Source of the DNA: an uncultured Caldilineaceae bacterium
Lineage (GTDB): Bacteria > Chloroflexota > Anaerolineae > Caldilineales > Caldilineaceae
Length of the DNA stretch: 64,000 nucleotides
Direction: 5' to 3'
Assembly: GCA_958295915.1 (NCBI GenBank)
Contig: OY282381.1
Location: 2,068,722-2,132,721 of the forward strand
The notes below the pieces were generated by a model that saw only the letters and a list, made by a program, of their open reading frames with translations, searched no databases and was not told the origin of the DNA. Position 1 is the stretch's first letter. Each line of letters begins with the position of its first letter. Positions 26,334-47,862 of this stretch are shown piece by piece. Made by a program: the position numbers and the translations under genes.

Positions 26334-26523
26334 CTGAACAGCCATAGATGGCGCGGCGACTGTTTTCAATGACACAGAGCGCGCCACCGGACAGGCGTAG
26401 CGTCACCATAGCCGTGTCGCTATCGCCAGCCTGGCCGATGGCTGGATCGATGAGACAAGAGCCAGTTGCGTACACTTCGTCCGGTCTCTCGTCGGCAAGC
26501 CAACAGACCAGATCAAAGTAGTG
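26334..26523 (-). pseudogene. Duplicated internal fragment of the Gfo/Idh/MocA dehydrogenase
   Basis: 190 bases that match 21462-21651 with only a few differences (codons about 171-233). Homology ends at GATCA, where family B palindromes begin. No start or stop of its own. Confidence 0.85.
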
Positions 26524-26526
26524 GAT

Positions 26527-26610
26527 CAGTCGCGCCCAACAGTGGCGCGCAATTCAGTCGCGCCCAACAGTGGCGCGCAATTCAGTCGCGCCCAACAGTG
26601 GCGCGCAATT
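26527..26610. repeat. Three head-to-tail family B palindromes (28-bp units)
   Basis: Three identical 28-base units (26527, 26555, 26583), each with stem CGCGCC/GGCGCG and loop CAACAGT. There are no spacers, so this is a local amplification of the repeat, not CRISPR. The last unit's tail supplies the TGA stop of the PhyH gene. Confidence 0.9.
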
Positions 26611-27398: not shown

Positions 27399-27460
27399 AT
27401 CCTCCTCCTTCTGTGACTTGCCCGCATCTCTCTTCTCTTTCCTCTGCCCTCTCTGCTCGG

Positions 27461-29654: not shown

Positions 29655-29677
29655 CTGCAACTCCTCTGGTTTGTAGT

Positions 29678-29707
29678 GTTGAATTGCGCGCCACTGTTGG
29701 GCGCGCC
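29678..29707. repeat. Family B palindromic repeat
   Basis: GTTGAATTG tail, then CGCGCC, loop ACTGTTG in this strand, GGCGCG. It begins 24 bases upstream of the aminotransferase ATG (minus strand). Confidence 0.85.
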
Positions 29708-29774
29708 ATGGGTAGACAGGGATTCGGACGGCGCAATCCCCCAGCCTTAAATGCAGTGGCCAGTAGTCAGTTTC

Positions 29775-29802
29775 CAGTGGCCAGTAACGGCACTGGCCAC
29801 TG
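29775..29802. repeat. Family D hairpin
   Basis: Perfect 11-bp stem CAGTGGCCAGT/ACTGGCCACTG around AACGGC. Confidence 0.75.
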
Positions 29803-29884
29803 TAGCGGTCAGGTAAACAACTTGCGTAACCTTGATTATACTTATATACTTGCCGGGTAAGGAAGTCTCGCGCAATCGTTAAAG

Positions 29885-29935
29885 GCAGTAGCCAGTAAAA
29901 TATCCAGTGGTCGGTGAAACCCCAGTGGCTACTGC
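29885..29935. repeat. Family D hairpin, long loop
   Basis: GCAGTAGCCA (29885-29894) pairs with TGGCTACTGC (29926-29935). Confidence 0.6.
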
Positions 29936-29953
29936 AGTAAAGAAACACAGCCT

Positions 29954-33988: not shown

Positions 33989-34783
33989 ATGAAAATCTTT
34001 ATGATCACAGACATGGAAGGGGTGGCAGGAGTTGTGTCCTTCGTGGATCAGTCCTATCCCGATGGCCGTTACTACGATGCCGGCAAACGTCTGGTTACCG
34101 GCGAAGTCAACGCCGCCATAGATGGTCTGCTGGCAGCCGGAGTGGAGGAGACCCTTGTCTGGGACGGTCACGGCGCCGGCGCCATCGATTTCGAAGAGTT
34201 GCATCCCAAAGCCCTCTTGCTACATGGTCGGCCTTCCCCTCTCTGGAGCCGATTGCAGGAGGTGATCCGGCGCTACGATGCCTGTGTCATCGTCGGCCAG
34301 CATGCCATGGCCGGGGTCGCCACCAGCAACCAGAACCATACCCAAAACAGTCACACTGTGGATGCCTACCGGCTCAACGGCAAGCTGATTGGCGAGATTG
34401 GACAGCTCGCCCTCTTCATGGGTGGGCTGGGTTTGCCCCTGCTCTTTCTCAGCGGCGAGCGAGATGCCTGTCGGGAGGCGGAAGATCTGGTGTCAGGGAT
34501 CACCACGGTGGCCGTTAAAGAAGGGTTGGGGCGAGGCTCCGCCATCTCTCTTTCCGCCCAAACGGCGCGCCAGCGCATCCGGCAGGGGATCGCCACAGCC
34601 GTGGCCCAGCATCGCCAAAATCCGATTGCCCCCCTGATCTGGCCCGGACCGTATCTGTTGGAGAAACGCTTCTTCTTTACCGACACAGCCGATGCCGAGA
34701 TGACTAAACCCGGCGCAGATCGGGTGAACGCGCAGGTTGTGCGCTTTCGCAGCGACAACATTCTCGATATTGTCTACCGGTAA
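33989..34783 (+). CDS. M55-family D-aminopeptidase (DppA-like)
   Basis: 264 residues; GGAG before the ATG. Zinc ligands known from Bacillus DppA align as D8 and E10 in ITDMEG, H61 in WDGHGAG, H105 in GQHAMAG and E136 in IGEIGQ. NHTQNSHTV is the conserved central loop. The enzyme removes N-terminal D-amino acids (D-Ala, Gly) from short peptides and forms decamers in relatives. No signal peptide, so it acts on imported peptides, which fits the two Opp-type importers in the window. It starts a run of catabolic hydrolases and is followed by a convergent enolase-superfamily gene with a 21-base gap. Confidence 0.93.
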   Translation: MKIFMITDMEGVAGVVSFVDQSYPDGRYYDAGKRLVTGEVNAAIDGLLAAGVEETLVWDGHGAGAIDFEELHPKALLLHGRPSPLWSRLQEVIRRYDACVIVGQHAMAGVATSNQNHTQNSHTVDAYRLNGKLIGEIGQLALFMGGLGLPLLFLSGERDACREAEDLVSGITTVAVKEGLGRGSAISLSAQTARQRIRQGIATAVAQHRQNPIAPLIWPGPYLLEKRFFFTDTADAEMTKPGADRVNAQVVRFRSDNILDIVYR

Positions 34784-34804
34784 TGTCAGGGAGCGAACGC
34801 CGAA

Positions 34805-36160
34805 TCAATAAAGTCCTGGCCCCATGGCCGCCGGTAGGATCAATTGGCCGTCTGCGATCTGAAAATAGTCGGGATAGGCAGCCTTTTCATCTGGCCGCGC
34901 CAGAGGCATAAACTGGCGATGATTGCCTTCGAAACAGTCCACATCCAGGCGCAAGTGGGCGCAAAAGTTGGCGCTGTGAACCAATGCCAGACCAGGGTTG
35001 GTGAGGTCTTGCAGCGTGAGATAGAGCCCATGGTGACGGCCCCAGCAGTAGGCCAACAGCGAATGGGTATGGCCCTTGCAGGTCTTTACCGCCAGCCCGG
35101 ACCAGCCCAAACGGCGCAGCCAATCGAGATTGTCCAGGTCGTCCAGGCTTTCGTCGACGATCACCGGTACCCGGTCGGCCACGTCGTGGAGCGTGTCGGT
35201 ATAGCTCCCCAGATCGCGGGGGGTGGGCTGTTCGATGTAGTCCAACGCAGGTAGCGCCTGGGGCTTTTCCGCTGCCACCCGATCCAGCATTTCGAGCATC
35301 ACATTGGGCTCACGGTAGCCTTCGTTGGGATCCACCGACAGACGCGGGCCGCCCGGCACACCCACAGCTTCCAGCGCTTGGGAGGCCACAGTGTGTACAT
35401 CTATCAGGCGATCGGCATCTTCGGCCGGCGATTGGCCGCGCAGCTTGAGCTTCAGATGGCGCACTCGATCGCGCTCGATCCACGTCGTCAGGTCAGCCGG
35501 GATCCCCGCCGGCGCCGGCTGCTCCGGGCCCACCTGTGCCGGAGTCAGGGCATCGTTGATACCGACCACATGTTGAACGGGCAGCGCGCGCCGCCTTGGG
35601 ATCAGGTAGTCTGCCGGGTAGCGCCCGACAAAGTCCGCGCCCAGATAAACGCCCAGATCCTGGTTCAGATATGTTTCGGTGTATGCGGTGTAGAGGGGTA
35701 CAGGGAGGGCCGCGCCCCAGGCGTCGTGAAGCGCGGCGTCGAAAGGCGCCATGCAGTTGAGCACAGCCAGCCGCGGCATCGGCGTCCTCTGCAGAAAAGG
35801 CTCTTCACCGGCCAACTGGCCGGCCCGTTCGACCGCGACCCGTTCCAACGCTACGCCCTTTTCCATGGGGTCGCCGTAGGTGTCATTTTCCAGCCAGGCG
35901 GCAATGGCCGCGCACAGCCGGCGCATGAGACGGTCCTTCTCTGCGTGGCTCAGATCCGGCGCGGGAAAGGACCACACGTCCGAGAGCAGAATGGCGCCCA
36001 CACCCTGCACGCCCGCGCCTGCCCGGGTGCGCGCCTGCAAGGTGACTGTGGCATAGGTGATCGCATCAATCACGCCTCTGCTGAGATGCAAGGGGACGCT
36101 CAAACGCTCATCGGCAAAGGCTACCTTCACTGTCTCCACACGGATATCGGTCGGGTTCAT
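34805..36160 (-). CDS. Enolase-superfamily enzyme (mandelate racemase/muconate lactonizing type)
   Basis: 451 residues from the ATG at 36160 with AGGAGAG upstream. The barrel shows the superfamily order: K-x-K at 237-239 (HLKLKL), metal ligands D277 (SVDPNEGY), E310 (YIEQPTP), then D336/E337 (VIVDESLDD) and a C-terminal lysine (K359 or K362, AVKTCKGH). The N-terminal capping domain is longer than usual (about 230 residues). It would abstract an alpha-proton from a carboxylate, as in sugar-acid dehydratases or dipeptide epimerases. With D-aminopeptidase next door an epimerase role is attractive but unproven. A family B repeat lies 31 bases upstream. Confidence 0.88.
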   Translation of the reverse strand: MNPTDIRVETVKVAFADERLSVPLHLSRGVIDAITYATVTLQARTRAGAGVQGVGAILLSDVWSFPAPDLSHAEKDRLMRRLCAAIAAWLENDTYGDPMEKGVALERVAVERAGQLAGEEPFLQRTPMPRLAVLNCMAPFDAALHDAWGAALPVPLYTAYTETYLNQDLGVYLGADFVGRYPADYLIPRRRALPVQHVVGINDALTPAQVGPEQPAPAGIPADLTTWIERDRVRHLKLKLRGQSPAEDADRLIDVHTVASQALEAVGVPGGPRLSVDPNEGYREPNVMLEMLDRVAAEKPQALPALDYIEQPTPRDLGSYTDTLHDVADRVPVIVDESLDDLDNLDWLRRLGWSGLAVKTCKGHTHSLLAYCWGRHHGLYLTLQDLTNPGLALVHSANFCAHLRLDVDCFEGNHRQFMPLARPDEKAAYPDYFQIADGQLILPAAMGPGLY

Positions 36161-36190
36161 GGCAAGCTCTCCTACAGGGACGCGGGTACA

Positions 36191-36221
36191 GGTTCCATTG
36201 CGCGCCGCTGTTGGGCGCGAC
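36191..36221. repeat. Family B palindromic repeat
   Basis: GGTTCCATTG tail, stem CGCGCC/GGCGCG with loop GCTGTTG in this strand; 31 bases upstream of the enolase-family start. Confidence 0.85.
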
Positions 36222-36503
36222 ATTTGCGCGCGCTAGGGCGCGGCTGTTCCATAAAAATCTACTGTTCGTTTCGCCGCATGTCTGCTAGAATTAAGCGGTC
36301 CAACACCCACCCGATAGAACAGACCCCGGAGGCTACTGGCAGCAGGCGTTACCGTTGCGTAATTCTGAGTATTATGATAGCATAACCAACAAAAGAGTTC
36401 TATGGTGTCGTACTGAAAGGACACAGGCGAGAACCAAGCTATTGTGGGTCGAGTAAGCCATAGGACGAAACGGTACCCAACGTGTACTTATTATCGTGCG
36501 TTG

Positions 36504-36532
36504 TTGAGACTTACGTTTACGCAACAAATAAT
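36504..36532 (+). promoter_or_regulatory. Putative promoter of the creatininase-family gene
   Basis: TTGAGA (36504-36509), 17-base spacer, AATAAT (36527-36532); the ATG follows 14 bases later, so the leader would be very short. Confidence 0.5.
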
Positions 36533-36546
36533 GTATCGGATGAACT

Positions 36547-37299
36547 ATGCATGATCAACATGTCTTCATCGGTGATCTCACCCGGCGTGAATTTCGCGAA
36601 GCGTTAGCAGCCGATACCTTTCAGACGGCCATCATTCCCACCGGCAGCATCGAGCAACATCTCGAACATCTGGCCATGGAGCACGACATCCGTATGGCCA
36701 CCCATATCGCCGAACAGGTGGCCCGCCAATTATATCCCCAGGTAATCGTCACCCTCCCGATACGCGCCGGTATCTCGGAACATCACATGATGCACCAGGG
36801 CACGATCACCGTCAAACCGGGTTCCTGGCTGAGCGTGCTGTTCGACGCGGTAGAGAGTTTGGTGCGCCACGGCATCAACAATGTTCTGATCTTAAACGGG
36901 CACGGCGGCAATGAAGCGCCCGTCTATGGCATCATCCGCCAGTGGCAGCTCTATTTTCAGGCGCAAGCGCCAGCAGCCAATGTGCAGTTTCACTCCTACT
37001 GGAATCTGAGCCGACCGGAAGCAGAGAAGCTATGTAAAGGCAACGTGCCGGGTCATGCCCAGGAATACGAAACCGCTATGGCCCTGGCCGTGTTTCCGCA
37101 AAACGTGCGCCCGGATGCCATGCGCGACCAGGAAGACAGAGAGCCATTGGATGCCGCAGCGGAACAAGGGCAACAGTTGGTCGACGCGGCCGTGAATGCC
37201 ACCCGCCGCTACGTGGAAGAGATGATCGCGGGTCAGCGCCGGGAGATCCAGGACCACCTCTTCTCCGACCAGCTGGACCCACAGGCGCATCGCCGCTAA
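36547..37299 (+). CDS. Creatininase-family amidohydrolase
   Basis: 250 residues. Metal-binding pattern complete: PTGSIEQH (E36, H38), EHD (D47), NGHGGN (H119), and PGHAQEYETA (E173). The family opens cyclic or linear amides (creatinine, formamides, or mycofactocin and riboflavin intermediates); substrate preference cannot be read from sequence. The position beside an M20 peptidase and a nitrilase suggests a role in amide breakdown. It is convergent with the M20 gene, with only 26 bases between the stops. Confidence 0.92.
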   Translation: MHDQHVFIGDLTRREFREALAADTFQTAIIPTGSIEQHLEHLAMEHDIRMATHIAEQVARQLYPQVIVTLPIRAGISEHHMMHQGTITVKPGSWLSVLFDAVESLVRHGINNVLILNGHGGNEAPVYGIIRQWQLYFQAQAPAANVQFHSYWNLSRPEAEKLCKGNVPGHAQEYETAMALAVFPQNVRPDAMRDQEDREPLDAAAEQGQQLVDAAVNATRRYVEEMIAGQRREIQDHLFSDQLDPQAHRR

Positions 37300-37325
37300 C
37301 GGCCTGTGCAGGGTTATTTTGCGCG

Positions 37326-38561
37326 CTACTGGTCCGGCCGTGTAGAGGCCAGACCGCAATAGCCTACGGCGGTGAGCGCATAGACCTGCGCGGCCTGTTT
37401 CAAGCGCGTAAGTGATACCCACTCCCCATCCGCATGGGCTGTGTCATTGGAAGGGCCGTAATAGAAGGCCGGCACACCCCCCAGATTGACGTACAAGTTG
37501 GCGTCGCCCACAATGCGTTTGCCGCTGATAGCAACCTGGCTGCCATGCACGAAGCGGTGGGCTTGCGCCGCTGCCCGAACCGCAGCATCATCGCTTGGGG
37601 TTTCGAAGGGTTCTCGCTCGTGCGTCATGTTTACGCTCAGATCCAACTGGCCGGCCTCGGCAAAAGGTGCGGCCAGGGCCCGCAACTCGGCCAATACGTC
37701 GTCGGCGTTGACGCCAGGCCCCCAGCGTCGTGTACCGGTCAGTCGACAATGCACGGGCGTACGGTTGAAGTAGTCGCCAGCTTGCGCCATACCTAAATCG
37801 ATCCGCTCGGCTCCCGCCAGGGGATGCGCCGTGCCTGCGTTCAATTCTGCCTGATAGGCAGTGATACGCTGGATCAGGTCGCCTACAAAGCGAATCGGAT
37901 TCTCGGCGAAGGGCACATAGGTGGTGTGAGTTCCGCCGCGTGGGGATGTCAGTTGGATTGTGAACACCATGGATCCCATACTCATGACCCACAGTTCATT
38001 CCAGCCCTCGCCGATCAATATTCTGTCACCGCCGACGCGACCACTTTTGTGATCCTCGATCAGGGTGAGGGGGCCATCCTTCTCAGCCTCCGGCTCCTCG
38101 TGGCCAACAATGGCCGTAAGCCACAGATCGCCGGCCAAGGAGATATCTGTCGCCTTCAGGGCCCGCAGCGCGCCGAGCATGGCGGCCATCGCCCCCTTCA
38201 TATCGGTAGCCCCGCGACCGTACAGACGGTCGCCCTCCCGACGACAGGACACACAGTTGCCGATGGGAATCGTGTCCAGATGACCGTTCAACATCAAGCT
38301 GGGCCCGTTGCCGATGCCTGGAAGACGGGCGTACAGGTTGTAACGACCGCTGCTTACTTGGCGTTGGTCCACCGTCAAGCCGAGGCCCCGCAATTGGGAG
38401 GCATAGGTCTGACAGATTTCAGCCTCCTGCATGGTCACGCTGGGAATTTCTACCAACGTCTGCGCCTGTTGGGCAATCCAATCGCCATCCACAGCGTTTT
38501 TTAGCGTCGTCCACTGCTCTTGTGCCTGTTGTTCCATCTGCATCCTCTGTTTGGTTGTCAT
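37326..38561 (-). CDS. M20-family metallopeptidase (ArgE/DapE type)
   Basis: 411 residues. Zinc motifs in order: NGHLDTIP (His, Asp), GRGATDMKG (bridging Asp), GHEEPE (catalytic and ligand Glu), and a late His in TAHADGEW. A dimerisation domain lies in between (about 200-310). These enzymes hydrolyse N-acyl amino acids or dipeptides in the cytoplasm. AAAGAGA precedes the ATG. It follows, on the same strand but after 520 bases, the aminotransferase/nitrilase/deacetylase operon. Confidence 0.93.
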   Translation of the reverse strand: MTTKQRMQMEQQAQEQWTTLKNAVDGDWIAQQAQTLVEIPSVTMQEAEICQTYASQLRGLGLTVDQRQVSSGRYNLYARLPGIGNGPSLMLNGHLDTIPIGNCVSCRREGDRLYGRGATDMKGAMAAMLGALRALKATDISLAGDLWLTAIVGHEEPEAEKDGPLTLIEDHKSGRVGGDRILIGEGWNELWVMSMGSMVFTIQLTSPRGGTHTTYVPFAENPIRFVGDLIQRITAYQAELNAGTAHPLAGAERIDLGMAQAGDYFNRTPVHCRLTGTRRWGPGVNADDVLAELRALAAPFAEAGQLDLSVNMTHEREPFETPSDDAAVRAAAQAHRFVHGSQVAISGKRIVGDANLYVNLGGVPAFYYGPSNDTAHADGEWVSLTRLKQAAQVYALTAVGYCGLASTRPDQ

Positions 38562-38778
38562 GAAAATCTCTTTGCAGGCGCGCCAGAATGCCTCTTCAGC
38601 CTGAACCCTGCGGAAGCCTGCATGCTCTACGTAGGAATCGGGAGATAGTCGGAAGAAGTGAGCAGTGAGAGGGCTGCTGTCTCTCTCCTCTCAGAGTGGA
38701 GCTATCATAGCACGGAGATTTCTGAAATTCAAACGCAGAATCGTTGGCCAGAAATTTCGATAGCATACTGTCGAAGAG
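38562..38778. other. Intergenic stretch with family E repeat
   Basis: GAAGAAGTGAGCAGTGAGAG... with CTCTCTCCTCTC (about 38652-38695) resembles the GAGAAGTGAG hairpin family, but pairing is poor. No gene is seen. Confidence 0.45.
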
Positions 38779-39031
38779 GTGGAGCAAGTCCTGGCTGAGC
38801 ATTACGAAACCGTACAACGGATCGAAGATATATATCCCCGACATGTGTTTGTGCGGGTTTCTCCCTGCCCCGGAGGCGCCGATATTGTCATTGAATATGA
38901 AAGCTATCAAGAGAAGATAGAGATTGAAAAAATTCTTGATGAAACAGATGCGAGAGAGGAAGCGCCATGGAAATTTTTCGGCGTTCCATTTCGAATAGTA
39001 GGTTACATTGCGCGCCACTGTTGGGCGCGAC
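38779..39031 (+). pseudogene. Small unknown gene read through by a family B repeat
   Basis: From GTG 38779 the frame gives a protein-like stretch (EHYETVQRIEDIYPRHVFVR, later GGADIVIEYESYQEKIEIEK) of about 75 residues ending PWKFFGVPFRIVGY. It then enters a family B palindrome (read as IARHCWARH) and continues without a natural stop. The function is not recognised. It is probably a real small gene whose 3' end was replaced by the repeat. Confidence 0.35.
39001..39031. repeat. Family B palindromic repeat
   Basis: GGTTACATTG tail, stem CGCGCC/GGCGCG; it lies 51 bases downstream of the class-V aminotransferase stop (minus strand). Confidence 0.85.
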
Positions 39032-39081
39032 ATGATAGGTTAGGGAATTGGTTGTTGCGGCCGAAACGAGCCAAAGATCGC

Positions 39082-40260
39082 CTACCGTCGGCTCTGGGCC
39101 AGGCTACGCACCGCATCGATAAGCAGGTCGATCTCGTCCTCCAGCAGGAAGAAGGAAACGCTGGCGCGCACGCCATTGTGGGCGATGGTGAGAGGGCGGA
39201 CGATGATCCGCCATCGATCCCGCAAAGTCTGGGTCAGTTCTGCCCCGTCCCAGCCGGCCACAGTAAAGCTGACCAGGGCGGCAGAGCGCTCGGTCTCAAA
39301 GGGGGTATAGAGTGTGACGCCAGGGATGGCGAGCAGCCCCTGCTTGAGGCGGCGGGTGAGCTGCGCGGTTCGTCCCCAGATAGTGTCCAGCCCGATGGCC
39401 GCCAGGTAGTCGGCGGCAAAGGCCCAGGTATGCACCAGCGGCCACGACCAGGGGCCATATTCGAACCGATCTGCCCCCTCCTTCAGTGCATAGGTATCGG
39501 TATCGTAGCGTAGCCAGGCTTCGGCGCGCCCGCCGGCATAGGTGACCTGCAACGCTTCGAACTGCTCCGAACGGATGTAAAGCGCGCCGGAGGCATAGGG
39601 AGCGTACATCCACTTATAGGAGAGAATGCCGGCGAAATCACAGCCTAGCTCAGGCAAGTCGATGGGAAATAGACCGGCCGAGTGGGCCAGATCGACGAAG
39701 GTGGGGATGCCTCGTTCTCGGGCCTGCGCGCAGATCTGGGCAACAGGGAGACGGAAACCGGTATCCGTGGTGACGTGGCTGATGGCGAGCAGGCGGGTGC
39801 GATCGGTAGTACGCGCCGCGAAGGCGTCTGGCTGCGCCTCCATATCCGCCAGCAGAGGAACCTTGACCACATCGACGCCGTGTCTATCCCGCAAGTGCAG
39901 GGACGGCAGATAGAGGGCGGCATCTTCTTCAGCCGTCGTCAACACCTGATCGCCGCGGCGCCAGGTCAGGCCGCGCAGCACCGTCTGATAGGCTTCGCTG
40001 ACGCCGCGCATGAGGGCCAGTTCAGGCGGCGCGACGCCGAAAAACCGGGCCAATCGGGATTTGGAGCGGGCGCGTCGGGGATATTCCTCGTCCGGGTAGA
40101 CGATGTGCATGGGCCCCCGCTCCACCATCTCCCGCATGAAGCGCATCTGTTCAGCGGCGATGGCGCGCGGGGTTACACTCACCCCGCCATTCTGAAACCA
40201 GACAGAGTGCGCCAACGCAGGGATGTCGGCGCGTATCTTCTCAAGCGCCGCGCGCTGCAT
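39082..40260 (-). CDS. Class-V aminotransferase (isopenicillin-N epimerase/cysteine desulfurase-like)
   Basis: 392 residues from the ATG at 40260, overlapping the end of the nitrilase gene by 20 bases. PLP lysine K216 in ILSYKWMYAP; D190 and H193 in FVDLAHSAG. The start WFQNGGVSVTPRAI is the typical class-V N-terminus. The S/T-x-H-K of cysteine desulfurases is replaced by SYK and no desulfurase Cys loop is evident, so epimerase or transaminase activity is more likely. It is last in the order nuclease, deacetylase-like, nitrilase, aminotransferase. Confidence 0.9.
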   Translation of the reverse strand: MQRAALEKIRADIPALAHSVWFQNGGVSVTPRAIAAEQMRFMREMVERGPMHIVYPDEEYPRRARSKSRLARFFGVAPPELALMRGVSEAYQTVLRGLTWRRGDQVLTTAEEDAALYLPSLHLRDRHGVDVVKVPLLADMEAQPDAFAARTTDRTRLLAISHVTTDTGFRLPVAQICAQARERGIPTFVDLAHSAGLFPIDLPELGCDFAGILSYKWMYAPYASGALYIRSEQFEALQVTYAGGRAEAWLRYDTDTYALKEGADRFEYGPWSWPLVHTWAFAADYLAAIGLDTIWGRTAQLTRRLKQGLLAIPGVTLYTPFETERSAALVSFTVAGWDGAELTQTLRDRWRIIVRPLTIAHNGVRASVSFFLLEDEIDLLIDAVRSLAQSRR

Positions 40261-41146
40261 GGGAGAGGTCCAGTGCAGTTTGCCAGGCAGGGGTTTCGCT
40301 CTGCTGTTCAATCAACTCGTAATAGGTCTCAGGGCGTCGCATCCCCAGATAGCAGTCTTTCAGGGTGGGATAGCGCTTTTTGAGTTCGCCCGTGTACCAG
40401 GTTTCATACCCGGCATCGAGATCGACGTCGGCAAAGACCAGGCCGGGCCGGTGGGAGGTATCTGCCAGACTACGCCCGTACGGGTCGACGATGCGCGAAT
40501 GACCCATGGAGCGACCGGCCAGGAAGGGCTGCATCACAAAATGGGAAGAAACCAGGTAGACCTGGTTGTCGATGGCGCGGGCGTTGACGATCGACTCAAT
40601 ATGATCGCCTGTGTAGTCGATACACATGGTGGGAAAGAGCAGCGCATGCGCGCCCTTCAGGGCCAGGATGCGCCACATCTCTGGATAGTGAATATCCATA
40701 CAGATCCCCATGCCTACACGTCCGAAATCGCACTCAAAAACCGGATAGCCCAGGTCACCGGGCAAAACCTCATCCTCCTCACCGGGGGCCAAGTGCATCT
40801 TGCGATACGTGCCCACCAGCTCGCCCTTGCGGTCCAGCAGTACGCCCGTATTATAGATGCGGTCACCGGCCCGCTCGCGTTGGCTATAGGCTACATAGAT
40901 GTTGTTGTCCCTGGCCCGTTGGGCAAACTGGGCCAGAGTGGCGCCGCCGGGAATCGGTTCGGGCAGATCAGGCACATGGTCGGCGCGACATCCGACCACA
41001 TCAGGCTCTTCCGGCAAGAGGACGATGTCCGCCTGGGCGTCGCCGGCGCGGTCGATCATCTCCAGACAACGGTCGATACAGCGGCTGGGATAGCTGGGCG
41101 GTTCATCGAGCAGAATGCTGGCCGTGGCCAGACGCGCGGGTCTCAT
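40241..41146 (-). CDS. Carbon-nitrogen hydrolase (nitrilase superfamily amidase)
   Basis: 301 residues. Catalytic triad E46 (LLPEEPD), K116 (YRKMHLAPGEE), C149 (GICMDIHYPE). The RKMHL and GEE context resembles N-carbamoyl-amino-acid amidases and beta-ureidopropionase relatives. It would release ammonia, or CO2 and ammonia, from a carbamoyl or amide group. Its ATG overlaps the deacetylase-like gene's TGA (ATGA, 41143-41146), showing translational coupling. Confidence 0.93.
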   Translation of the reverse strand: MRPARLATASILLDEPPSYPSRCIDRCLEMIDRAGDAQADIVLLPEEPDVVGCRADHVPDLPEPIPGGATLAQFAQRARDNNIYVAYSQRERAGDRIYNTGVLLDRKGELVGTYRKMHLAPGEEDEVLPGDLGYPVFECDFGRVGMGICMDIHYPEMWRILALKGAHALLFPTMCIDYTGDHIESIVNARAIDNQVYLVSSHFVMQPFLAGRSMGHSRIVDPYGRSLADTSHRPGLVFADVDLDAGYETWYTGELKKRYPTLKDCYLGMRRPETYYELIEQQSETPAWQTALDLSHAARGA

Positions 41147-42141
41147 TGGCTGGAACCTCCGACGGATAGGGTAACGGGCTGTGACAGATCCAAGGTGGCG
41201 CGCAGCGCGCTGCCTGTGACGAGCAGTCCGGGTTGGGGCTGTCCATTCAGCATGATGTAGGGATTGCGCCGCAGGTTGGGCGCAACTTCGATATCAACCG
41301 TGACCTGCCGACTGGCCACGGGGACCGGCAGATCGCGCAACCGCAGACGATAGCTCTCCTGCCCAGACGCAGCGGGTTCGATCTGCAGATGGCGACGGCA
41401 CACGATGTAGTCCAGGATCTCCTCGGCCGTAGCAATCCAGACCTCGTCCCCGCCGCTTTCCACAACCGCATGCAAGCGGGCGCGATGTTCGTCGATATAC
41501 AGATCTTTGCTTTCGTGGGGAATGGACGGCGCCGGACAATGACAGTAGTCAATTACCCAACCCGATTCCCTTTGCGCTTGCATCAGCCGATGGTGGGGGT
41601 CAAAGGCGGAGAACAGCGGCGTCCAGGCCTGATGCAGATTGCTGGCGCGGTTCAGAAACCAGAGATCCGCGTCAGGGCGGTTGATGTCGTCGGTGACGGA
41701 CAGAGCGCACAGATAGCCGGACTCCTGCAGGGCCGCGGTGATGGCCGGCGTAATGTTGGCGTTGCTGCCCGGCGCGGTGTAGACGGTCACACGCTGGCCG
41801 ATCGCCTCTTCCAACACCTGTTTGGCCTGACGGATTTCGAGATCCAGATTCTCCTCCACAATGCCGTGACTCCAGGAGTGGTTGCCGACACCCCACCCCA
41901 TGTCGATCAGCTCCCGCAGCCTGTCCGCGCCCATGTGATGATAGCCGTTGTAGCTGGAGTTGCCGATCTGGCGCACTTGGCCCATCTGCCCCACCACAAC
42001 CTCTACATGGCCGGGGATACCGAGCTCCTCGTGCAGGGGAACCGTATGGTCGAACAGTTCCGTAAGCGCCTCATCGTAGGTGACCGTATAGGCCCATTCT
42101 TTGCCATGCTTCCAAGTGGTTGGGGTGATCTGGATGTTCAT
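41143..42141 (-). CDS. Polysaccharide deacetylase-like (NodB fold) protein
   Basis: 332 residues, no signal peptide. NodB motifs: VTYDEAL for the first Asp, GNHSWSHG for the zinc His pair, YTAPGSNANI for the R/APG motif. The last ~90 residues form an added beta-domain. Cytoplasmic location and company with amidases suggest deacylation or amide cleavage of a small compound (compare allantoinase-like NodB proteins) rather than cell-wall work. It overlaps by four bases both the nuclease gene before it and the nitrilase gene after it. Confidence 0.85.
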   Translation of the reverse strand: MNIQITPTTWKHGKEWAYTVTYDEALTELFDHTVPLHEELGIPGHVEVVVGQMGQVRQIGNSSYNGYHHMGADRLRELIDMGWGVGNHSWSHGIVEENLDLEIRQAKQVLEEAIGQRVTVYTAPGSNANITPAITAALQESGYLCALSVTDDINRPDADLWFLNRASNLHQAWTPLFSAFDPHHRLMQAQRESGWVIDYCHCPAPSIPHESKDLYIDEHRARLHAVVESGGDEVWIATAEEILDYIVCRRHLQIEPAASGQESYRLRLRDLPVPVASRQVTVDIEVAPNLRRNPYIMLNGQPQPGLLVTGSALRATLDLSQPVTLSVGGSSQ

Positions 42142-42965
42142 AGTTCTCTTTCAAAATCATCGAATAATCCCAATTGATATGAACCATCAGCTTTCAAGTC
42201 AATTTTCCGCGGCACATATTTCCCGTCATTCACTCCACCTAAATTGTTGATGGCTTTTGTAACCTGAGGGACACAATACATCTCCACCTGTTCTTGTATT
42301 TGAAAAGTTGTAAAGTGGAATACATTCCAACCAACCGCTTTGAGATTATTGTCGCGCACATTATCTTGTACAGATTTCTCTGGATTCGCGTGCCATGTGT
42401 CACCATCCGCTTCAACGGCAATGTTGCCTTTCGCACAATAGATAGCAAAATCTAATCTATAGTTCTGGTTTTCAACCGTGACAAACTCTTGCCGCTCAGC
42501 GGGAATATTGTATTTCTTGAACACTGCCCACAAACGGTCCTCCAATGGACTTTCATCATACAAATCATTGATTTCAATCGCATTGATAAATTTCTGCCAA
42601 GTCGTTGGAATAAAAACGATTCTGCGCCAACGTCGACTAAAAATAGGTTGGTGTAACTTCTTTCGTGGGCCGAGAATAAGCTGATAATACCTATCATTGC
42701 TTTTCTTATCCGCTGGATCGTTGGGAAACAGTTGCCAACGGCGAACGATTCGAATATCAAGTACTTGCGCATAATAATTTACAGAGTACGCTTCATGTCC
42801 AAATACTTTCGTTTGATAAAACGCAATCCACTGGGGCGGCCATCGTTCTTTCAACCAGTTCCTGACACTGGAAACAGGAATTCGATACCAATTTTGGTCT
42901 CGAATCATGGCAAAGTCTCGTTTATTATTGACAATCGCCACCAATACTTCACCGCGTTCAGACAT
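42138..42965 (-). CDS. PD-(D/E)XK endonuclease-like protein (DUF559-type C-terminus)
   Basis: 275 residues. The C-terminal part carries ESPLEDRLWAVFKKYNI, then RLDFAIYC (D172) and IAVEADGDTWH (E185, D187), the D..ExD nuclease core of DUF559/Vsr-like proteins. A HFTTFQI block after NPEKSVQDNVRDNNLKAVGW also matches. The first 130 residues are unassigned (WLKERWPPQWIAFYQTKVFG). The gene is visibly more AT-rich than its neighbours, a sign of transfer. Unusually, its stop overlaps the deacetylase-like start (ATGA), so a nuclease is translationally coupled to metabolic genes. DNA target and role are unknown; stand-alone defence or repair is possible. Confidence 0.8.
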   Translation of the reverse strand: MSERGEVLVAIVNNKRDFAMIRDQNWYRIPVSSVRNWLKERWPPQWIAFYQTKVFGHEAYSVNYYAQVLDIRIVRRWQLFPNDPADKKSNDRYYQLILGPRKKLHQPIFSRRWRRIVFIPTTWQKFINAIEINDLYDESPLEDRLWAVFKKYNIPAERQEFVTVENQNYRLDFAIYCAKGNIAVEADGDTWHANPEKSVQDNVRDNNLKAVGWNVFHFTTFQIQEQVEMYCVPQVTKAINNLGGVNDGKYVPRKIDLKADGSYQLGLFDDFEREL

Positions 42966-42971
42966 GTTTTT

Positions 42972-43025
42972 CGAGAAGTGAAGAGATATGAAGCAAGGGG
43001 GTGTTCTCTCCTCTTCCCTTTCTCC
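42972..43025. repeat. Family E-like repeat
   Basis: GAGAAGTGAAGAGA facing TCTCCTCTTCCCTTTCTCC, imperfect pairing; it fills the 69-base gap between the DegT and nuclease genes. Confidence 0.45.
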
Positions 43026-43034
43026 TCTCTTTGG

Positions 43035-44285
43035 CTAAATGTAGTTATCCTCCGCAACTGTACGCACAATCGACGCTGCCAGTTCACAATCCTCCGGCTG
43101 ATACTTTTCGCAGAAGGACGACCAGCGAATAAAGTTTTGCAGAAACGCCTGGGCGCTTGGGCAATTGTCACCGCTGTAGGTATATGCGCGGGAGGCCGGC
43201 GGCATGGCATATTGATGGGTTTTGTTGCTGGCGCGTTTCTGCAGAAAGGCGCAGGCCGCTGGCATCAAGTAGTATCTACCCTGTCCCGCGCCAGGAATGC
43301 CGGCGGCGGCCAACTGCTGGGCGAACTCCTCCGGGCTACAGCGAAACGCGGCCGGCTCGATGCTGAACCCCGCCATCCAGCAGGAGTAGACATCCATATA
43401 ATCAGGAATGGAAAGGGGCGTGATCCCAGGGATCTCGGCCAGCAGTCCGCTCAACAGGCGGATCATGCGATCTCGCTGCTCTACCTGCGCCTGGATAATC
43501 TCCAGTTGGCCGAGGGTAATCGCCGCCGTGGCCTGGGGCATGCGATAGGCATAGCCAAGCGCGGAGTGGACCCGTCCGAAATGCGGCGCCATCTCGCCAC
43601 CGCGGCTGTGGCCGATAAAGCGCAGGGTCTCGGCCAACGCATCGTCATTCGTGACCACACAGCCCCCTGTATCTGAGCCTAAAGTCTTTTCGGAATCGAA
43701 TGAAAACCCCGCGGCCTGGGCCAGCGTGCCGGCCATGCGCCCCTTGTAGCGACCCAAAACCGCCTGGCAGACATCCTCGTAGACGAAGAGGCCATATTTG
43801 GCGGCCAGATCGTTGATCGGATCCATGTCACAGATGATGCCTGTCTTGTGAACCACCAGCGCCGCGCGCGTCCGCTGCGTGATACAGGCTTCGATGCTCC
43901 GGGCGCTGATGTTCACCGTGCCGGGTTCCGTGTCGGCAAATACAGGGATATAGTTTTCCAGACAAAGGCCCTGGATGGTGCCGAAATCCGTGATAGGGCT
44001 GACGATGATCTCATCGCCCGGTTCAAAAGGGAAGGCCGCGGCCAGAACGCCCAAAGCCGGCGTGCAGCCGGGCGTGGCAATACAGTGTTTGACGCCAAGC
44101 GCGTCGGCGAACGCCTTCTCAAAGCGTCCGATCATATCCACCGTGAGGCCGCTGTCCACGACCTCTTGCAGATAGGTGAGACAGTTCGGGCCCATCGTGC
44201 GGGGAAAGGGGGCCGGTAAGGCGCTCCGCGCCCCGGCAAGGCTGGCCGCGCCGTACGTAGCGCGTGTTCTCGGTGCAGTAGTCAT
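43035..44285 (-). CDS. DegT/DnrJ/EryC1/StrS-family PLP aminotransferase
   Basis: 416 residues from the ATG at 44285; no clear ribosome site, since repeat sequence lies upstream. PLP lysine K200 in FSFDSEKTLGSDTGG, with D171 and Q174 in YEDVCQA. IATPGCTPALGVLAAAF and PGDEIIVSPITDF are the N-terminal blocks. It is related to, but clearly different from, the DegT protein at 28374. The lack of a nearby nucleotide-sugar pathway argues against surface-sugar synthesis, and linkage to an importer argues for amino-sugar or aminocyclitol breakdown (inference). Confidence 0.92.
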   Translation of the reverse strand: MTTAPRTRATYGAASLAGARSALPAPFPRTMGPNCLTYLQEVVDSGLTVDMIGRFEKAFADALGVKHCIATPGCTPALGVLAAAFPFEPGDEIIVSPITDFGTIQGLCLENYIPVFADTEPGTVNISARSIEACITQRTRAALVVHKTGIICDMDPINDLAAKYGLFVYEDVCQAVLGRYKGRMAGTLAQAAGFSFDSEKTLGSDTGGCVVTNDDALAETLRFIGHSRGGEMAPHFGRVHSALGYAYRMPQATAAITLGQLEIIQAQVEQRDRMIRLLSGLLAEIPGITPLSIPDYMDVYSCWMAGFSIEPAAFRCSPEEFAQQLAAAGIPGAGQGRYYLMPAACAFLQKRASNKTHQYAMPPASRAYTYSGDNCPSAQAFLQNFIRWSSFCEKYQPEDCELAASIVRTVAEDNYI

Positions 44286-44300
44286 TCTGATTTTTTGTTT

Positions 44301-44329
44301 GTAGGGGCGGGTCTTGTGCCCGCCCTGGG
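44301..44329. repeat. Family C hairpin, long-stem variant
   Basis: GTAGGGGCGGGTCTTGTGCC then CGCCCTGGG: arms GGGCGGG and CCCGCCC around a TCTTGTG loop. Confidence 0.65.
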
Positions 44330-44344
44330 CCACCCCAAGGTTGT

Positions 44345-44408: not shown

Positions 44409-45302
44409 TTAACGTCCCGACAGGCCTGTCAGCAAGATCCCCTCCATGAAGTAGCGCTGAGCGGCAAAGAACAGGATCAACACCGGAATCAGTGTCAAGG
44501 TTGATCCGGCCATCAGGTAGTTCCACTGCGTAACCTGTTGGTCGCGAAAAAACTGTAAGCCCAGGGCCAGGGTGCGCATGTGGGGTTTATTCATATAGAT
44601 CAGCGGCCCCATGAAATCATTCCAGTGGGACAATACTGTGAAGACCGTAATCGCCGCCAAAGGGGCCTTGGAAAAGGGCAGTATGATCTCCCACCAGACG
44701 CGCAGGCTCGACGCGCCGTCGATATAGGCGGCCTCGTCGTAATCGTAGGGCAAAGTGAGGTAAAACTGGCGCAGCAGAAAGATGTAGAAAGCGCCTCCGC
44801 CAAAAAAGGAGGGCACAGTCAAGGGCAGAAATGTGTTCACCCAGCCCAAACGGGTAAATAGCACAAAGGTGGGGATCAGGGTGACGATACCCGGCAGCAT
44901 CATCGTAGAAAGCAACACGGCAAACAGAAATTCTCGCTCAGGAAAGCGGCGCCGGGCAAAACCAAAGGCCACCAGACTTGCCGACAACACCGTGCCAAAG
45001 GTAGCCAGCCCGGTCACGATCAGCGTATTACGCAGATAGAGGAAGAACGGAAACTTCTGAATCGCCACTACATAGTTCCACCAGACAATCGGGCGCGGCA
45101 TCAGTTGGGGTGGGTAGGCGAAGATCTGTTGCGGTTCCTTTAACGATGTGCTGAGCATCCACAGATTGGGGAAGAGCAACACCAAACAGACAGCGCTCAG
45201 AAAAAGATACAGCGCCACGCGCGCCGCCGTTATCATCGACAGCCGCGCGGCGTCTCTCCGCTGTCCGCCTGCGAGCCTAAGGGGAACACTTGTGTGCGTC
45301 AT
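44409..45302 (-). CDS. Carbohydrate ABC importer permease (CUT1, MalG-like)
   Basis: 297 residues. First helix VALYLFLSAVCLVLLFPNLW; EAA loop DEAAYIDGASSLRVWWEIILPFS; tail AQRYFMEGILLTGLSGR. It is the second permease of the importer whose binding protein is at 46320, with two bases between the permease genes. A cognate ATPase gene is absent. A family D repeat begins directly after its TAA. Confidence 0.94.
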   Translation of the reverse strand: MTHTSVPLRLAGGQRRDAARLSMITAARVALYLFLSAVCLVLLFPNLWMLSTSLKEPQQIFAYPPQLMPRPIVWWNYVVAIQKFPFFLYLRNTLIVTGLATFGTVLSASLVAFGFARRRFPEREFLFAVLLSTMMLPGIVTLIPTFVLFTRLGWVNTFLPLTVPSFFGGGAFYIFLLRQFYLTLPYDYDEAAYIDGASSLRVWWEIILPFSKAPLAAITVFTVLSHWNDFMGPLIYMNKPHMRTLALGLQFFRDQQVTQWNYLMAGSTLTLIPVLILFFAAQRYFMEGILLTGLSGR

Positions 45303-45304
45303 TG

Positions 45305-46231
45305 TTAGCGCTCCGCCTCATAGAAAACCCACAGGCGCGCCATGCGCAGTTGGGTGATGGTGAAGATGAGAATAATCACAAACAGTACCCAGGCCAGCGC
45401 CGATGCATATCCCATCTTGAAGAACCGAAAGGCATTGTTATACAGATACAGGACGTAGAACAGAGTTGAATTGGCCGGCCCGCCGGCCGTAATGATATAG
45501 GCGCCGGTGAAGACCTGAAAGGTGCCGATGATGCCCAGCACCAGATTGAAAAAGATCAGCGGCGTCATCATCGGCACGGTAATATGGCGGAAACGATACC
45601 AGAGGTTTGCGCCATCGATGCTGGCCGCTTCGTAAAGGACCCGGGGCACATTTTGCAGGCCGGCCAAAAAGATAATCACGCTGCCGCCGATGCCCCAAAA
45701 GCCCATAATCACGAAAATGAGCTTGGTGATCTTGGGATCAAAAAGCCAGTTGAAGGTGGGCAGGCCCACGGTTCTGAGCACGGCGTTCACCAGGCCATAA
45801 TCGCCCGAAAAGAGCATCCCCCAAGTCAAAGCGCTGGCCACCGCCGGCGTAATCACCGGCAGATAATAGAGGGTGCGATATAGGTTGATGCCGCGCACCT
45901 GCACGCTCAACAGCAAGGCCACCAGGAACGCCGCAAACAGGCTCAAAGGAACGGAGAGAAAGACAAAGTAGAAGGTGTTGTAAAGGCTGAGCCTGAACAG
46001 GCGGTCATCGCCGAAAATCCTGGTGTAGTTCGCCAACCCCAACCAATCCGCGCCGGAGAGTACCGAATACTTGGTGAAAGAAAAGATAACGGAGGCGAGC
46101 ATCGGGCCGATCGTGAAGATCAGAAACCCCAAAACCCAAGGCAGAATATACAGCCGCCCTTCCCACGCCTCTTTGCGCGCCAGAGGGCCTGGCCTGGTAG
46201 GGATTGTGTTGCGCGCCGCTCGGAGCGCCAT
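45305..46231 (-). CDS. Carbohydrate ABC importer permease (CUT1, MalF-like)
   Basis: 308 residues from the ATG at 46231 (MALRAARNTIP). Helix 1 is YILPWVLGFLIFTIGPMLAS, and the EAA loop VLYEAASIDGANLWYRFRHITVP. The first nine codons lie in GCGC-rich palindromic sequence (46207-46229), so the start was probably built from a repeat; the open frame extends 23 codons further through family C and D repeats and is not credible there. It pairs with the permease at 44409. Confidence 0.9.
   Translation of the reverse strand: MALRAARNTIPTRPGPLARKEAWEGRLYILPWVLGFLIFTIGPMLASVIFSFTKYSVLSGADWLGLANYTRIFGDDRLFRLSLYNTFYFVFLSVPLSLFAAFLVALLLSVQVRGINLYRTLYYLPVITPAVASALTWGMLFSGDYGLVNAVLRTVGLPTFNWLFDPKITKLIFVIMGFWGIGGSVIIFLAGLQNVPRVLYEAASIDGANLWYRFRHITVPMMTPLIFFNLVLGIIGTFQVFTGAYIITAGGPANSTLFYVLYLYNNAFRFFKMGYASALAWVLFVIILIFTITQLRMARLWVFYEAER
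46207..46229. repeat. Palindromic element at the permease start
   Basis: GCGCGCC, GCTCGGA, GCGCC: it resembles families A and B and overlaps the ATG and first codons of the permease gene on the minus strand. Confidence 0.5.
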
Positions 46232-46245
46232 GCAGATACTCCCAA

Positions 46246-46318
46246 CTGCAGTGACCAGTAACTGCACTGGGCAACCACAAGGGTTGCCCCTACTGACCAC
46301 TGGCTACTGATCACCGCA
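46246..46318. repeat. Family D repeat with a family C hairpin nested inside
   Basis: AGTGACCAGTAACTGCACTG is followed by the family C hairpin at 46269-46293 (GGGCAACC ... GGTTGCCC), then TGACCACTGGCTACTGATCA resumes family D. It occupies the binding-protein/permease junction. Confidence 0.7.
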
Positions 46319-46319: not shown

Positions 46320-47651
46320 TTATGCGTTGACGAGGTCTGTCGATTCCTCGGCGAGCTGACCCAAAATCTCCTCGACCGGACGTGTCCCCAGCACCATCTC
46401 ATCCCAGGCCGCATCCCAGAAAGTGATCCATTCAGACTCTTTGGGGCTGGTGCTATAGGTGCGCAGGATCGGACGGATGGCTTCGTAGACCTCCGTATCT
46501 TCCCAACTGTAGACGGTAGCTGGCGCAACGCTCTTGATGGAGGGGAAGCGACCGCCGCCGATCTGAGCATAGATTCGGGCCGCGGCTTCCGAGAAGGAGC
46601 GCTCCTTATACCAGGCCCAGGCCGGATCGACATTGCCAGGGTTCTTGGAAAAATAGAAGGAGTTGAGCGCGGCCACAGAATACTGGCCACTCGGCCCTTT
46701 GGGGAAGGGCGCCATGCCGATGTCGAAAAGATCCGGCGCGCCGTCCTGAACGATATTGCGCGTGTACCACTGACCGGCCATGGTCGCCATGGAGCGGCCG
46801 TTGGTGAAGCTCAACGGCTGATCCGGGGTGCTGGCCCCGGGCAAAGGGGTCAGCCCATCGATGTAGAACTGTTGTATCCATTTCCAGAGGGCGATATTCT
46901 CCTCCGAGTCCATCAGGCTGGCTGAGAAGTCATCGCTCCACTGTTGCGTGCCCCAGGCCCAGGCCAACATCGCGTAGACCGAAACGCTGCGCGCCGACGA
47001 CATGCTGTAGCCGTAGATGGGAACACCGTCCTGTTCGCGGGTAAAGTCTTTGGCGAACTGGAGCCAGGCATCGTAGTCCCATTCGCCGCTTTCGTTCATC
47101 GCTTTGGGCGTGGTATAGCCGGCTTCGTTCACCGCTGTCAGGTTGTACCAGTGCAGCCAGCCACTGATGAACCAGGCCAAGCCATAGGTATCCCCCTCAA
47201 CCGTCTCCTTGGCGTAACCAAAGAAGTCATCGGCAGAGATGGTGGGATCGGCGTCGATCAGGTCGTCCAGTGGCCCGATAACGTCGTTTTCAATAAAGAG
47301 GGGCAACCATTGCCAGTAGCCGTAGATCACATCATATTTGGAGCCGCCAGCAATGGAGGTAAGCAGTTTTTCTGTGAACCCGGTCCAGGGCGCCTGTTCA
47401 CGCACCACCGCATAGTCCGGATACTTTTCGGTGAAATATTCGATAAACTCTTCATCCGCCACCACCCAAGCATCTGTGCCCGTCGGGTCGTAGTCGAAAA
47501 CATAGGCAACCACCTTTTCCCTATTCCCCGCCTGTGTTTCACCATCCATCGAATCCTGTGAAGCGACGGGGGCACAGGCGGCAAGTGTTAAACCTGTCCC
47601 GATCAAACCCGCATTGCGCATGAACTCCCGGCGACTCAGTTTTCTGTGCAT
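46320..47651 (-). CDS. Family 1 extracellular solute-binding lipoprotein (CUT1 importer)
   Basis: 443 residues from the ATG at 47651, with AAGGAGAC upstream; the frame before it is not supported. Twin-arginine lipoprotein signal SRREFMRNAGLIGTGLTLAAC, Cys at 26. SBP_bac_1 pattern: FIEYFTEKYPDYAVVREQAP, GSKYDVIYGYWQWLPLFIEN, and FTNGRSMATMAGQWYTRNI. A 14-base perfect palindrome of LacI-operator type lies 24 bases upstream, so expression is probably repressed by a LacI-family protein not found in the window. Confidence 0.93.
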   Translation of the reverse strand: MHRKLSRREFMRNAGLIGTGLTLAACAPVASQDSMDGETQAGNREKVVAYVFDYDPTGTDAWVVADEEFIEYFTEKYPDYAVVREQAPWTGFTEKLLTSIAGGSKYDVIYGYWQWLPLFIENDVIGPLDDLIDADPTISADDFFGYAKETVEGDTYGLAWFISGWLHWYNLTAVNEAGYTTPKAMNESGEWDYDAWLQFAKDFTREQDGVPIYGYSMSSARSVSVYAMLAWAWGTQQWSDDFSASLMDSEENIALWKWIQQFYIDGLTPLPGASTPDQPLSFTNGRSMATMAGQWYTRNIVQDGAPDLFDIGMAPFPKGPSGQYSVAALNSFYFSKNPGNVDPAWAWYKERSFSEAAARIYAQIGGGRFPSIKSVAPATVYSWEDTEVYEAIRPILRTYSTSPKESEWITFWDAAWDEMVLGTRPVEEILGQLAEESTDLVNA

Positions 47652-47674
47652 GTTGTCCTGTCTCCTTGTTAAAT

Positions 47675-47688
47675 GAGAAGCGCTTCTC
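47675..47688. promoter_or_regulatory. LacI-family-type operator palindrome
   Basis: GAGAAGCGCTTCTC is a perfect 14-bp palindrome with central CG, as in LacI/CcpA-type operators. It lies 24-37 bases upstream of the binding-protein ATG at 47651. Confidence 0.6.
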
Positions 47689-47862
47689 GAAAGTGACATA
47701 AAATTCAATTCCGAAGTGGACAGCTCTCAATTCGGAATTCTAAATTACGATGATATGCCCGTAAAGTGGATGTACCCATCATCAATTATTGCATCGACCT
47801 TTCATTCTCGCAAACTCTTACCCCACTTCGCCACATTGAGAACTGCTTAGCGATTCAGTCAT

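What the first reader, a model, noticed from the sequence alone, without database searches (positions are those of the whole stretch)
33989..44285. Possible uncharacterised pathway for D-amino-acid or amide-bearing compounds
D-aminopeptidase, enolase-superfamily enzyme, creatininase-family amidohydrolase, M20 peptidase, class-V aminotransferase/epimerase, nitrilase-type amidase, NodB-type deacylase and DegT aminotransferase lie within 10 kb between two importers. Together they could take in a peptide or amidated sugar, remove acyl, carbamoyl and amino groups and epimerise a carboxylate. No named pathway that I know has this set.
Basis: inference. Interest (0 to 1): 0.6.

Follow-up and report, generated by a model that had tools for sequence, protein, structure and literature searches.

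The report
Uncharacterised amino-sugar breakdown gene module
A bacterium, probably a sponge symbiont, carries a sugar importer joined to an aminotransferase, an N-deacylase and an amide-cutting enzyme; the same trio recurs side by side in about ten other phyla, so it probably forms an undescribed route for breaking down nitrogen-bearing sugars, with an unknown substrate.

Summary
All eight enzymes are present at the stated coordinates. They are not one pathway unit. Comparison within the genus (Caldilineaceae, Chloroflexota) splits them into three blocks. (1) M55 peptidase + enolase-superfamily enzyme, a pair in all 13 same-genus genomes tested. (2) Creatininase-like + M20, a pair in all 16. 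(3) An accessory operon at 47708-39082 (-): sugar ABC importer, DegT aminotransferase, NodB hydrolase, nitrilase, class-V PLP enzyme; its genes are gained or lost together. The three blocks lie side by side only in the window's genome; two relatives have blocks 1+2 without 3, and most have 2+3 with 1 elsewhere. The strongest result lies outside the window. The DegT enzyme belongs to a distinct subfamily found under some 13 phylum labels. Of 56 loci outside Caldilineaceae, 43 encode a NodB hydrolase within 6 kb and 35 an isochorismatase-like cysteine hydrolase; a few have a nitrilase instead. Of 29 control loci around other DegT genes, none do. Heparinase- or oligoalginate-lyase-like genes sit nearby in 11 loci. 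The best reading is cytosolic catabolism of an imported N-acylated, probably amide-bearing amino sugar or amino-uronate. 'D-amino acid' is not supported for the operon. Substrate and order of steps are inferred.

The parts
46320..47708 (-). SBP2, extracellular solute-binding protein of a sugar-type ABC importer, first gene of the operon
   Evidence: PF01547 5e-18; syntenic in the operon-bearing relatives whose contigs reach this far
45305..46300 (-). P2a, ABC permease
   Evidence: PF00528 5.6e-10; syntenic
44409..45302 (-). P2b, ABC permease
   Evidence: PF00528 7.3e-17; syntenic
43035..44333 (-). DegT2, DegT/DnrJ/EryC1/StrS aminotransferase of a distinct subfamily; PLP lysine K216
   Evidence: PF01041 5.3e-65; subfamily one side of a branch at 99% SH-aLRT against 6 outgroup rows; K216 in 71 of 72
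42138..42965 (-). DUF559/MTES_1575-type nuclease-like protein, lineage-specific insertion in the operon
   Evidence: PF18741 7.8e-10, PF04480 3.1e-7; at this spot only in the window and G011
41143..42141 (-). NodB-fold metal-dependent amidohydrolase (predicted cytosolic N-deacylase)
   Evidence: PF01522 7.5e-9; AF2 pLDDT 93.7 with NodB fold; D23, H45, R57, H88, H92, H201 conserved
40241..41146 (-). Nitrilase-superfamily amidase
   Evidence: PF00795 2.1e-45; E-K-C triad conserved; present/absent with DegT2
39082..40311 (-). AT5, class-V PLP enzyme (SufS/CsdA/PvdN-like, no curated cut-off met)
   Evidence: PF00266 9.1e-45; present/absent with DegT2
37326..38561 (-). M20 metallohydrolase, ArgE/DapE type; universal genus pair with the creatininase homologue
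   Evidence: PF01546 5.8e-24; TIGR01910 146 bits under its 217.6 cut-off
36547..37299 (+). Creatininase-family metallo-amidohydrolase (not a true creatininase by NCBIfam cut-off)
   Evidence: PF02633 1.9e-42; TIGR04448 76 bits vs cut-off 235
34805..36223 (-). Enolase-superfamily enzyme, MLE subgroup; separate module with M55
   Evidence: PF13378 6.3e-9; AF2 pTM 0.84, VIA Z 27-31 to MLE/dipeptide epimerases
33989..34783 (+). M55-family peptidase (DppA-like); separate module with the enolase
   Evidence: PF04951 8.6e-63; DppA equivalog 132 bits under its cut-off of 430

Best explanation
The real functional unit is the minus-strand operon 47708-39082, with the creatininase/M20 pair as regular neighbours. 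Its core (DegT aminotransferase + NodB metal amidohydrolase + cysteine-dependent amidase) is a conserved, uncharacterised catabolic module. Proposed mechanism: the importer (SBP2/P2a/P2b) takes up an N-acylated amino sugar or amino-uronic acid derivative. In the cytosol the NodB enzyme removes the N-acyl group. DegT2 then moves the freed amino group to a keto acid, leaving a keto sugar. The nitrilase (or, in other phyla, an isochorismatase-like cysteine hydrolase) hydrolyses a remaining amide, such as a carboxamide or carbamoyl. In Caldilineaceae AT5, M20 and the creatininase-like enzyme act on further C-N bonds of this or related substrates. Shown: gene content, intact catalytic residues, co-inheritance, cross-phylum linkage. 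Inferred: substrate class, direction and order of steps. My probability that the trio acts in one pathway is about 0.85, that it is carbohydrate catabolism about 0.6, and that this exact order is right about 0.25.
For: Operon genes are gained and lost together: AT5 is in 10 of 16 same-genus genomes, the same ones that have DegT2 at 83% or more; nitrilase agrees in all 12 tested. Outside Caldilineaceae, 43 of 56 DegT2 loci have NodB within 6 kb and 35 an isochorismatase-like hydrolase (29 and 23 of 34 loci with at least 4 kb on both sides); 29 control loci around other DegT genes have none. The amidase type changes at least 4 times on the DegT2 tree, which points to replacement by unrelated enzymes for one job. 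Sugar-type ABC genes lie directly next to DegT2 in both Caldilineaceae clusters; cluster 2 also has glucuronoyl-esterase and xylose-isomerase-like genes. Heparinase II/III- or oligoalginate-lyase-like proteins occur in 11 DegT2 loci and no control. DegT relatives at 35-36% in Rhizobium sit in sugar-acid-type clusters. The NodB protein keeps its metal residues. Sponge Caldilineae are reported to degrade uronic acids and probably glycosaminoglycans (PMC6306507).
Against: No substrate, activity or expression data exist. DegT enzymes are better known in biosynthesis, and direction cannot be read from sequence. The lyase-like neighbours are in a minority of loci, c20 matches oligoalginate lyase only weakly (8.5e-6), and the controls are not lineage-matched. 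In nine of the 56 loci neither partner was found. No kinase, isomerase or aldolase lies in the window's operon to link the product to central metabolism. The neighbour scan used home-made ORF calls on MAG contigs.
Confidence: 0.5

Rival explanations
1. Glutamine transaminase plus omega-amidase: DegT2 aminates a keto sugar or cyclitol with glutamine, and the nitrilase (or isochorismatase-like enzyme) hydrolyses the 2-oxoglutaramate by-product. The module would then make or remodel an amino sugar, with NodB removing a protecting acyl group as ArnD does after ArnB.
For: The nitrilase matches NIT2, a known omega-amidase (2w1v), at 1.5e-25, close to its best PDB hit. Several DegT homologues with structures are glutamine-dependent cyclitol aminotransferases. 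Omega-amidase is known to be coupled to glutamine transaminases (reference titles in PMC3223725).
Against: The importer is the operon's leading unit. No glycosyltransferase or NDP-sugar enzyme is among the 25 commonest families near DegT2 loci. I know of no isochorismatase-fold omega-amidase. All nitrilase equivalog models lie far below cut-off.
Confidence: 0.15
2. Ureide, imide or hydantoin breakdown: the NodB enzyme opens a cyclic amide as PuuE allantoinase does, the cysteine amidase removes a carbamoyl group, and M20 and the creatininase-like enzyme continue.
For: The enzyme classes match by superfamily: NodB/PuuE, M20, class-V aminotransferase, N-carbamoyl amidases.
Against: PuuE allantoinases lack the MT1 aspartates and the second MT2 histidine (PMC10967932); here D23, H88 and H92 are kept in 27-28 of 28 family members. 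M20 scores as ArgE/DapE type and AT5 is SufS-like. The importer is sugar-type.
Confidence: 0.08
3. One pathway for all eight genes: a peptide or amidated sugar processed by M55, enolase, creatininase, M20 and the operon together.
For: M55-enolase-creatininase-M20 share the window's order in G010 and G012; creatininase is next to DegT in two other phyla; enolase homologues lie near DegT2 modules in Chthonomonas and Planctomycetaceae.
Against: M55+enolase persist in genomes without the operon and lie elsewhere in nearly all genomes that have it. M55 is a common family, with nine copies in one relative.
Confidence: 0.15
4. No joint function: unrelated enzymes that happen to share a neighbourhood in carbohydrate-rich genomes.
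For: M55/enolase do separate from the rest within the genus.
Against: Cross-phylum DegT-NodB-amidase linkage with 0 of 29 controls positive and all-or-nothing inheritance in the genus.
Confidence: 0.07

Closest known systems
arn operon pair ArnB (DegT) - ArnD (NodB deformylase)
   Same: A DegT aminotransferase and a NodB-fold de-N-acylase serve one amino sugar.
   Different: Here there is a sugar-type ABC importer and a cysteine amidase, and no ArnA/ArnC/ArnT was seen in the window's operon; the NodB protein is only distantly similar (ArnD structure 8t0j: VIA Z 16.5, rmsd 3.3 over 209 residues, 14% identity).
Perosamine synthase and sugar aminotransferases (3bn1, 3dr7, 7b0m)
   Same: Closest solved DegT relatives by sequence (3.7e-45 to 1.8e-38), PLP lysine present.
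   Different: The distinct subfamily has its own C-terminal region and conserved motifs (EDxCQA, FDxEKTxxSD) and pairs with NodB and amidase genes rather than NDP-sugar genes.
CE4/NodB polysaccharide deacetylases and PuuE allantoinase
   Same: NodB fold (VIA Z 17-22), MT1 Asp, two MT2 His and a His in MT5 position kept.
   Different: MT1 second Asp is Glu, MT3 Arg is missing, and no signal-peptide-like N-terminus is apparent; no match in 72,556 plasmids. The PuuE-specific losses are absent.
Nitrilase-superfamily amidases (NIT2, N-carbamoylputrescine amidase, Pyrococcus nitrilase)
   Same: E-K-C triad and fold family.
   Different: 96-99 bits against cut-offs of 355-500 in NCBIfam; substrate unknown.
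Creatinine amidohydrolase family, incl. creatininase, MftE and IolN
   Same: PF02633 match and EQHxxH and NGHGGN-type motifs.
   Different: All equivalog cut-offs missed by wide margins (76 vs 235, 69 vs 172, 63 vs 245).
Dipeptide epimerase / MLE subgroup of the enolase superfamily
   Same: KxK, D/E/D metal ligands, second lysine, fold (VIA Z about 29-31, rmsd about 3 over about 340 residues).
   Different: About 100 residues longer; invariant ExN near the C-terminus, where I recall DxD in dipeptide epimerases; belongs to the M55 module, not the operon.

Membership tests
DegT/DnrJ/EryC1/StrS aminotransferase (PF01041) | Pfam gathering score and PLP-binding lysine | tested here: met
   220 bits vs 19.8; K216 in 71 of 72 family members
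DegT-type sugar dehydratases (ColD/E1) | His in place of the PLP lysine | tested here: not met
   Lysine kept; defining feature from general knowledge
CE4/NodB amidohydrolase (PF01522) | NodB fold with MT1 Asp, MT2 two His, MT5 His | tested here: met
   AF2 model plus Foldseek/VIA; D23 27/28, H88 and H92 28/28, H201 28/28. Assigning H201 to MT5 is by position
CE4/NodB1.1 canonical | tandem Asp in MT1 and Arg in MT3 (RPPYG) | tested here: not met
   D-E in MT1; APG/CxPG without Arg in MT3, motifs as in PMC10967932
PuuE-type allantoinase | loss of MT1 Asp residues and of the second MT2 His | tested here: not met
   These residues are retained (definition)
Nitrilase superfamily (PF00795) | Glu-Lys-Cys triad | tested here: met
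   E46, K116, C149 conserved in 12-13 of 13
N-carbamoylputrescine amidase / deaminated glutathione amidase / nitrilase equivalogs | NCBIfam curated cut-off | tested here: not met
   96-99 bits vs 355-500
Creatininase (TIGR04448), MftE, IolN | NCBIfam curated cut-off | tested here: not met
   76 vs 235, 69 vs 172, 63 vs 245 bits
D-aminopeptidase DppA | NCBIfam equivalog cut-off | tested here: not met
   132.5 bits vs 430; M55 family itself met
MLE subgroup of enolase superfamily | KxK, three acidic metal ligands, second Lys | tested here: met
   K258/K260, D298, E331, D357, K380/K383 invariant in alignments A4 and A5
Dipeptide epimerase | DxD motif at the last barrel strand | tested here: inconclusive
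   Invariant E432-x-N434 lies near the expected place, but the position was not fixed on a structure alignment
Sugar-type (CUT1) ABC importer | SBP_bac_1 protein, two permeases, no ATPase in the operon | tested here: met
   ligand not testable here

The most novel reading that the evidence does not exclude
The DegT-NodB-cysteine amidase trio defines an undescribed catabolic pathway for N-acylated, amidated amino-uronic sugars (for example uronamide residues of bacterial or algal polysaccharides), spread across about ten mostly uncultured phyla, in which two unrelated cysteine amidases replace each other.
Probability: 0.3. Interest if true: 0.65.

Novelty: new variant of a known kind. Interest (0 to 1): 0.45.

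Why it matters
If right, it gives a testable gene set for how uncultured polysaccharide degraders (Latescibacterota, Armatimonadota, sponge Chloroflexota) recover carbon and nitrogen from amino-uronic sugars, and assigns a role to a DegT subfamily and a NodB subfamily that databases now label as biosynthetic aminotransferase or polysaccharide deacetylase.

Tried and rejected
Literature: no paper in the library holds DegT + nitrilase + polysaccharide deacetylase + isochorismatase together, nor DegT + sugar catabolism + aminotransferase + ABC transporter. Uronamide/aminotransferase/nitrilase searches gave only unrelated work on auxin and cyanide. Creatine/creatinine use by sponge symbionts (PMC6742649) was considered for the creatininase gene and dropped, because the protein is far below the creatininase cut-off. 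Plasmid searches with NodB found nothing; enolase and nitrilase gave only distant or generic hits. Fold search of the NodB model gives the fold but no substrate; the top VIA row is a phage turret protein (8qpg) and the next ones (4dwe, 3rxz) are uncharacterised. The first neighbour map was spoiled by antisense ORFs and was redone with a composition score. The overlap filter undercounts nitrilase in Caldilineaceae and hydrolases in L078/L080, so its counts are lower bounds.
Full report
OBSERVATION. The window lies in a complete 5.06-Mb genome whose same-genus relatives are Caldilineaceae MAGs of Chloroflexota. A ninth gene, DUF559-like, lies between DegT and NodB.

THREE BLOCKS, NOT ONE. Mapping window genes onto relatives and searching each gene in whole genomes gave a clear split. 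The operon SBP2-P2a-P2b-DegT2-(DUF559)-NodB-nitrilase-AT5 is inherited as a unit. DegT2 orthologues at 83% identity or more occur in G001-G006, G011 and G014-G016 and not in G007-G010, G012 or G013 (G007/G008 have only a 64-66% paralogue). AT5 agrees in all 16 same-genus genomes tested and nitrilase in all 12. Creatininase and M20 are a convergent pair in all 16 genomes, next to AT5 when the operon is present. M55 and enolase are a pair in all 13 genomes tested, usually with a Gfo/Idh/MocA oxidoreductase and far from the operon. In G010 and G012 the order M55-enolase-creatininase-M20 equals the window's but the operon is missing; enolase and creatininase are divergent there and in the window. 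Only the window's genome was seen with all three blocks together.

THE CORE MODULE ELSEWHERE. The DegT2 subfamily (47-85% identity; the next DegT proteins fall to 38% or less) was found in GTDB genomes labelled Chloroflexota, Armatimonadota/Zipacnadia, Latescibacterota, Handelsmanbacteria, Gemmatimonadota, Hydrogenedentota, Omnitrophota, Planctomycetota, Lentisphaerota and a few others; it is separated from six outgroup rows at 99% SH-aLRT. Single MAGs (Paceibacterota, Actinomycetota, Clostridia) may be binning errors. Of 56 loci outside Caldilineaceae, 43 have a NodB gene within 6 kb, 35 an isochorismatase-like hydrolase and 5 a nitrilase; with at least 4 kb on both sides, 29 and 23 of 34. 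Of 29 loci around other DegT genes, none has any of these families. The amidase type changes at least four times on the DegT2 tree. The isochorismatase-like proteins keep Cys193, but His40 and Trp42 stand where the usual Asp-x-Gln would be.

SUBSTRATE CLUES. The importer is sugar-type, with paralogous permeases beside the second DegT2 cluster in the genus, which also has glucuronoyl-esterase-like and xylose-isomerase-like genes. Heparinase II/III-like or oligoalginate-lyase-like proteins lie in 11 DegT2 loci and no control locus. The controls are not lineage-matched, so this is suggestive only. DegT relatives in Rhizobium plasmids lie beside altronate dehydratase, DHDPS-family aldolase and aldehyde dehydrogenase genes. 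Among the 25 commonest families of 103 neighbour proteins there is no glycosyltransferase or NDP-sugar enzyme, which speaks against biosynthesis but was not a full test. Sponge Caldilineae are described as uronic-acid and probable glycosaminoglycan degraders (PMC6306507), and Latescibacteria as alginate/ulvan degraders (PMC4454575).

ENZYME CHEMISTRY. The NodB protein models confidently (pLDDT 93.7). It keeps MT1 Asp23, MT2 His88/His92 and His201, unlike PuuE allantoinases. No signal-peptide-like N-terminus is apparent by eye, so a small cytosolic substrate is likely. DegT2 keeps its PLP lysine. The nitrilase keeps its triad. The enolase belongs to the MLE subgroup by residues and fold and with M55 fits D-amino-acid or peptide epimer chemistry, but that is the other module.

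MECHANISM. Import, N-deacylation by NodB, transamination by DegT2 and amide hydrolysis by nitrilase or isochorismatase-like enzyme is the simplest order that uses all members. It is inference. The omega-amidase reading of the nitrilase is the main rival.

VERDICT. Observation confirmed; interpretation partly supported. The grouping by position is partly accidental, but inside it lies a genuine, widely conserved and, as far as the library shows, undescribed module.

Noticed in passing
42138-42965 (-): DUF559/MTES_1575-type nuclease-like gene inside the operon, at this spot only in the window and G011 (77%); homologues at 57% and below lie elsewhere in other Chloroflexota genomes.
   Followed up: partly
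19510-21102 (-): 530-aa protein without any Pfam match; homologues at 25-26% lie in DegT2 loci L081, L108, L120, L138 and L140.
   Followed up: partly
15621-18671 (-): Type ISP restriction-modification enzyme (N6 methylase plus specificity domain).
   Followed up: no
18701-28252 (-): Three phytanoyl-CoA dioxygenase family genes within 10 kb, close to a second DegT gene at 28374-29948.
   Followed up: no
L130, L132, L133, L137, L146: Nearly identical 20-kb DegT2 loci in MAGs labelled Gemmatimonadota and Latescibacterota (DegT2 branch lengths 0-0.015): a labelling or binning problem or very recent transfer.
   Followed up: no
L121:11296-12078 and relatives: Isochorismatase-like family with invariant Cys193 but His40/Trp42 in place of the usual catalytic Asp-x-Gln; a possibly unusual active site.
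   Followed up: partly
L103, L105, L111, L113, L118, L125, L128: Second Caldilineaceae cluster: DegT2 paralogue, sugar ABC genes, another DegT, glucuronoyl-esterase-like and xylose-isomerase-like genes.
   Followed up: partly
63926-64001 (-): tRNA-Met (CAT) at the very end of the window.
   Followed up: no
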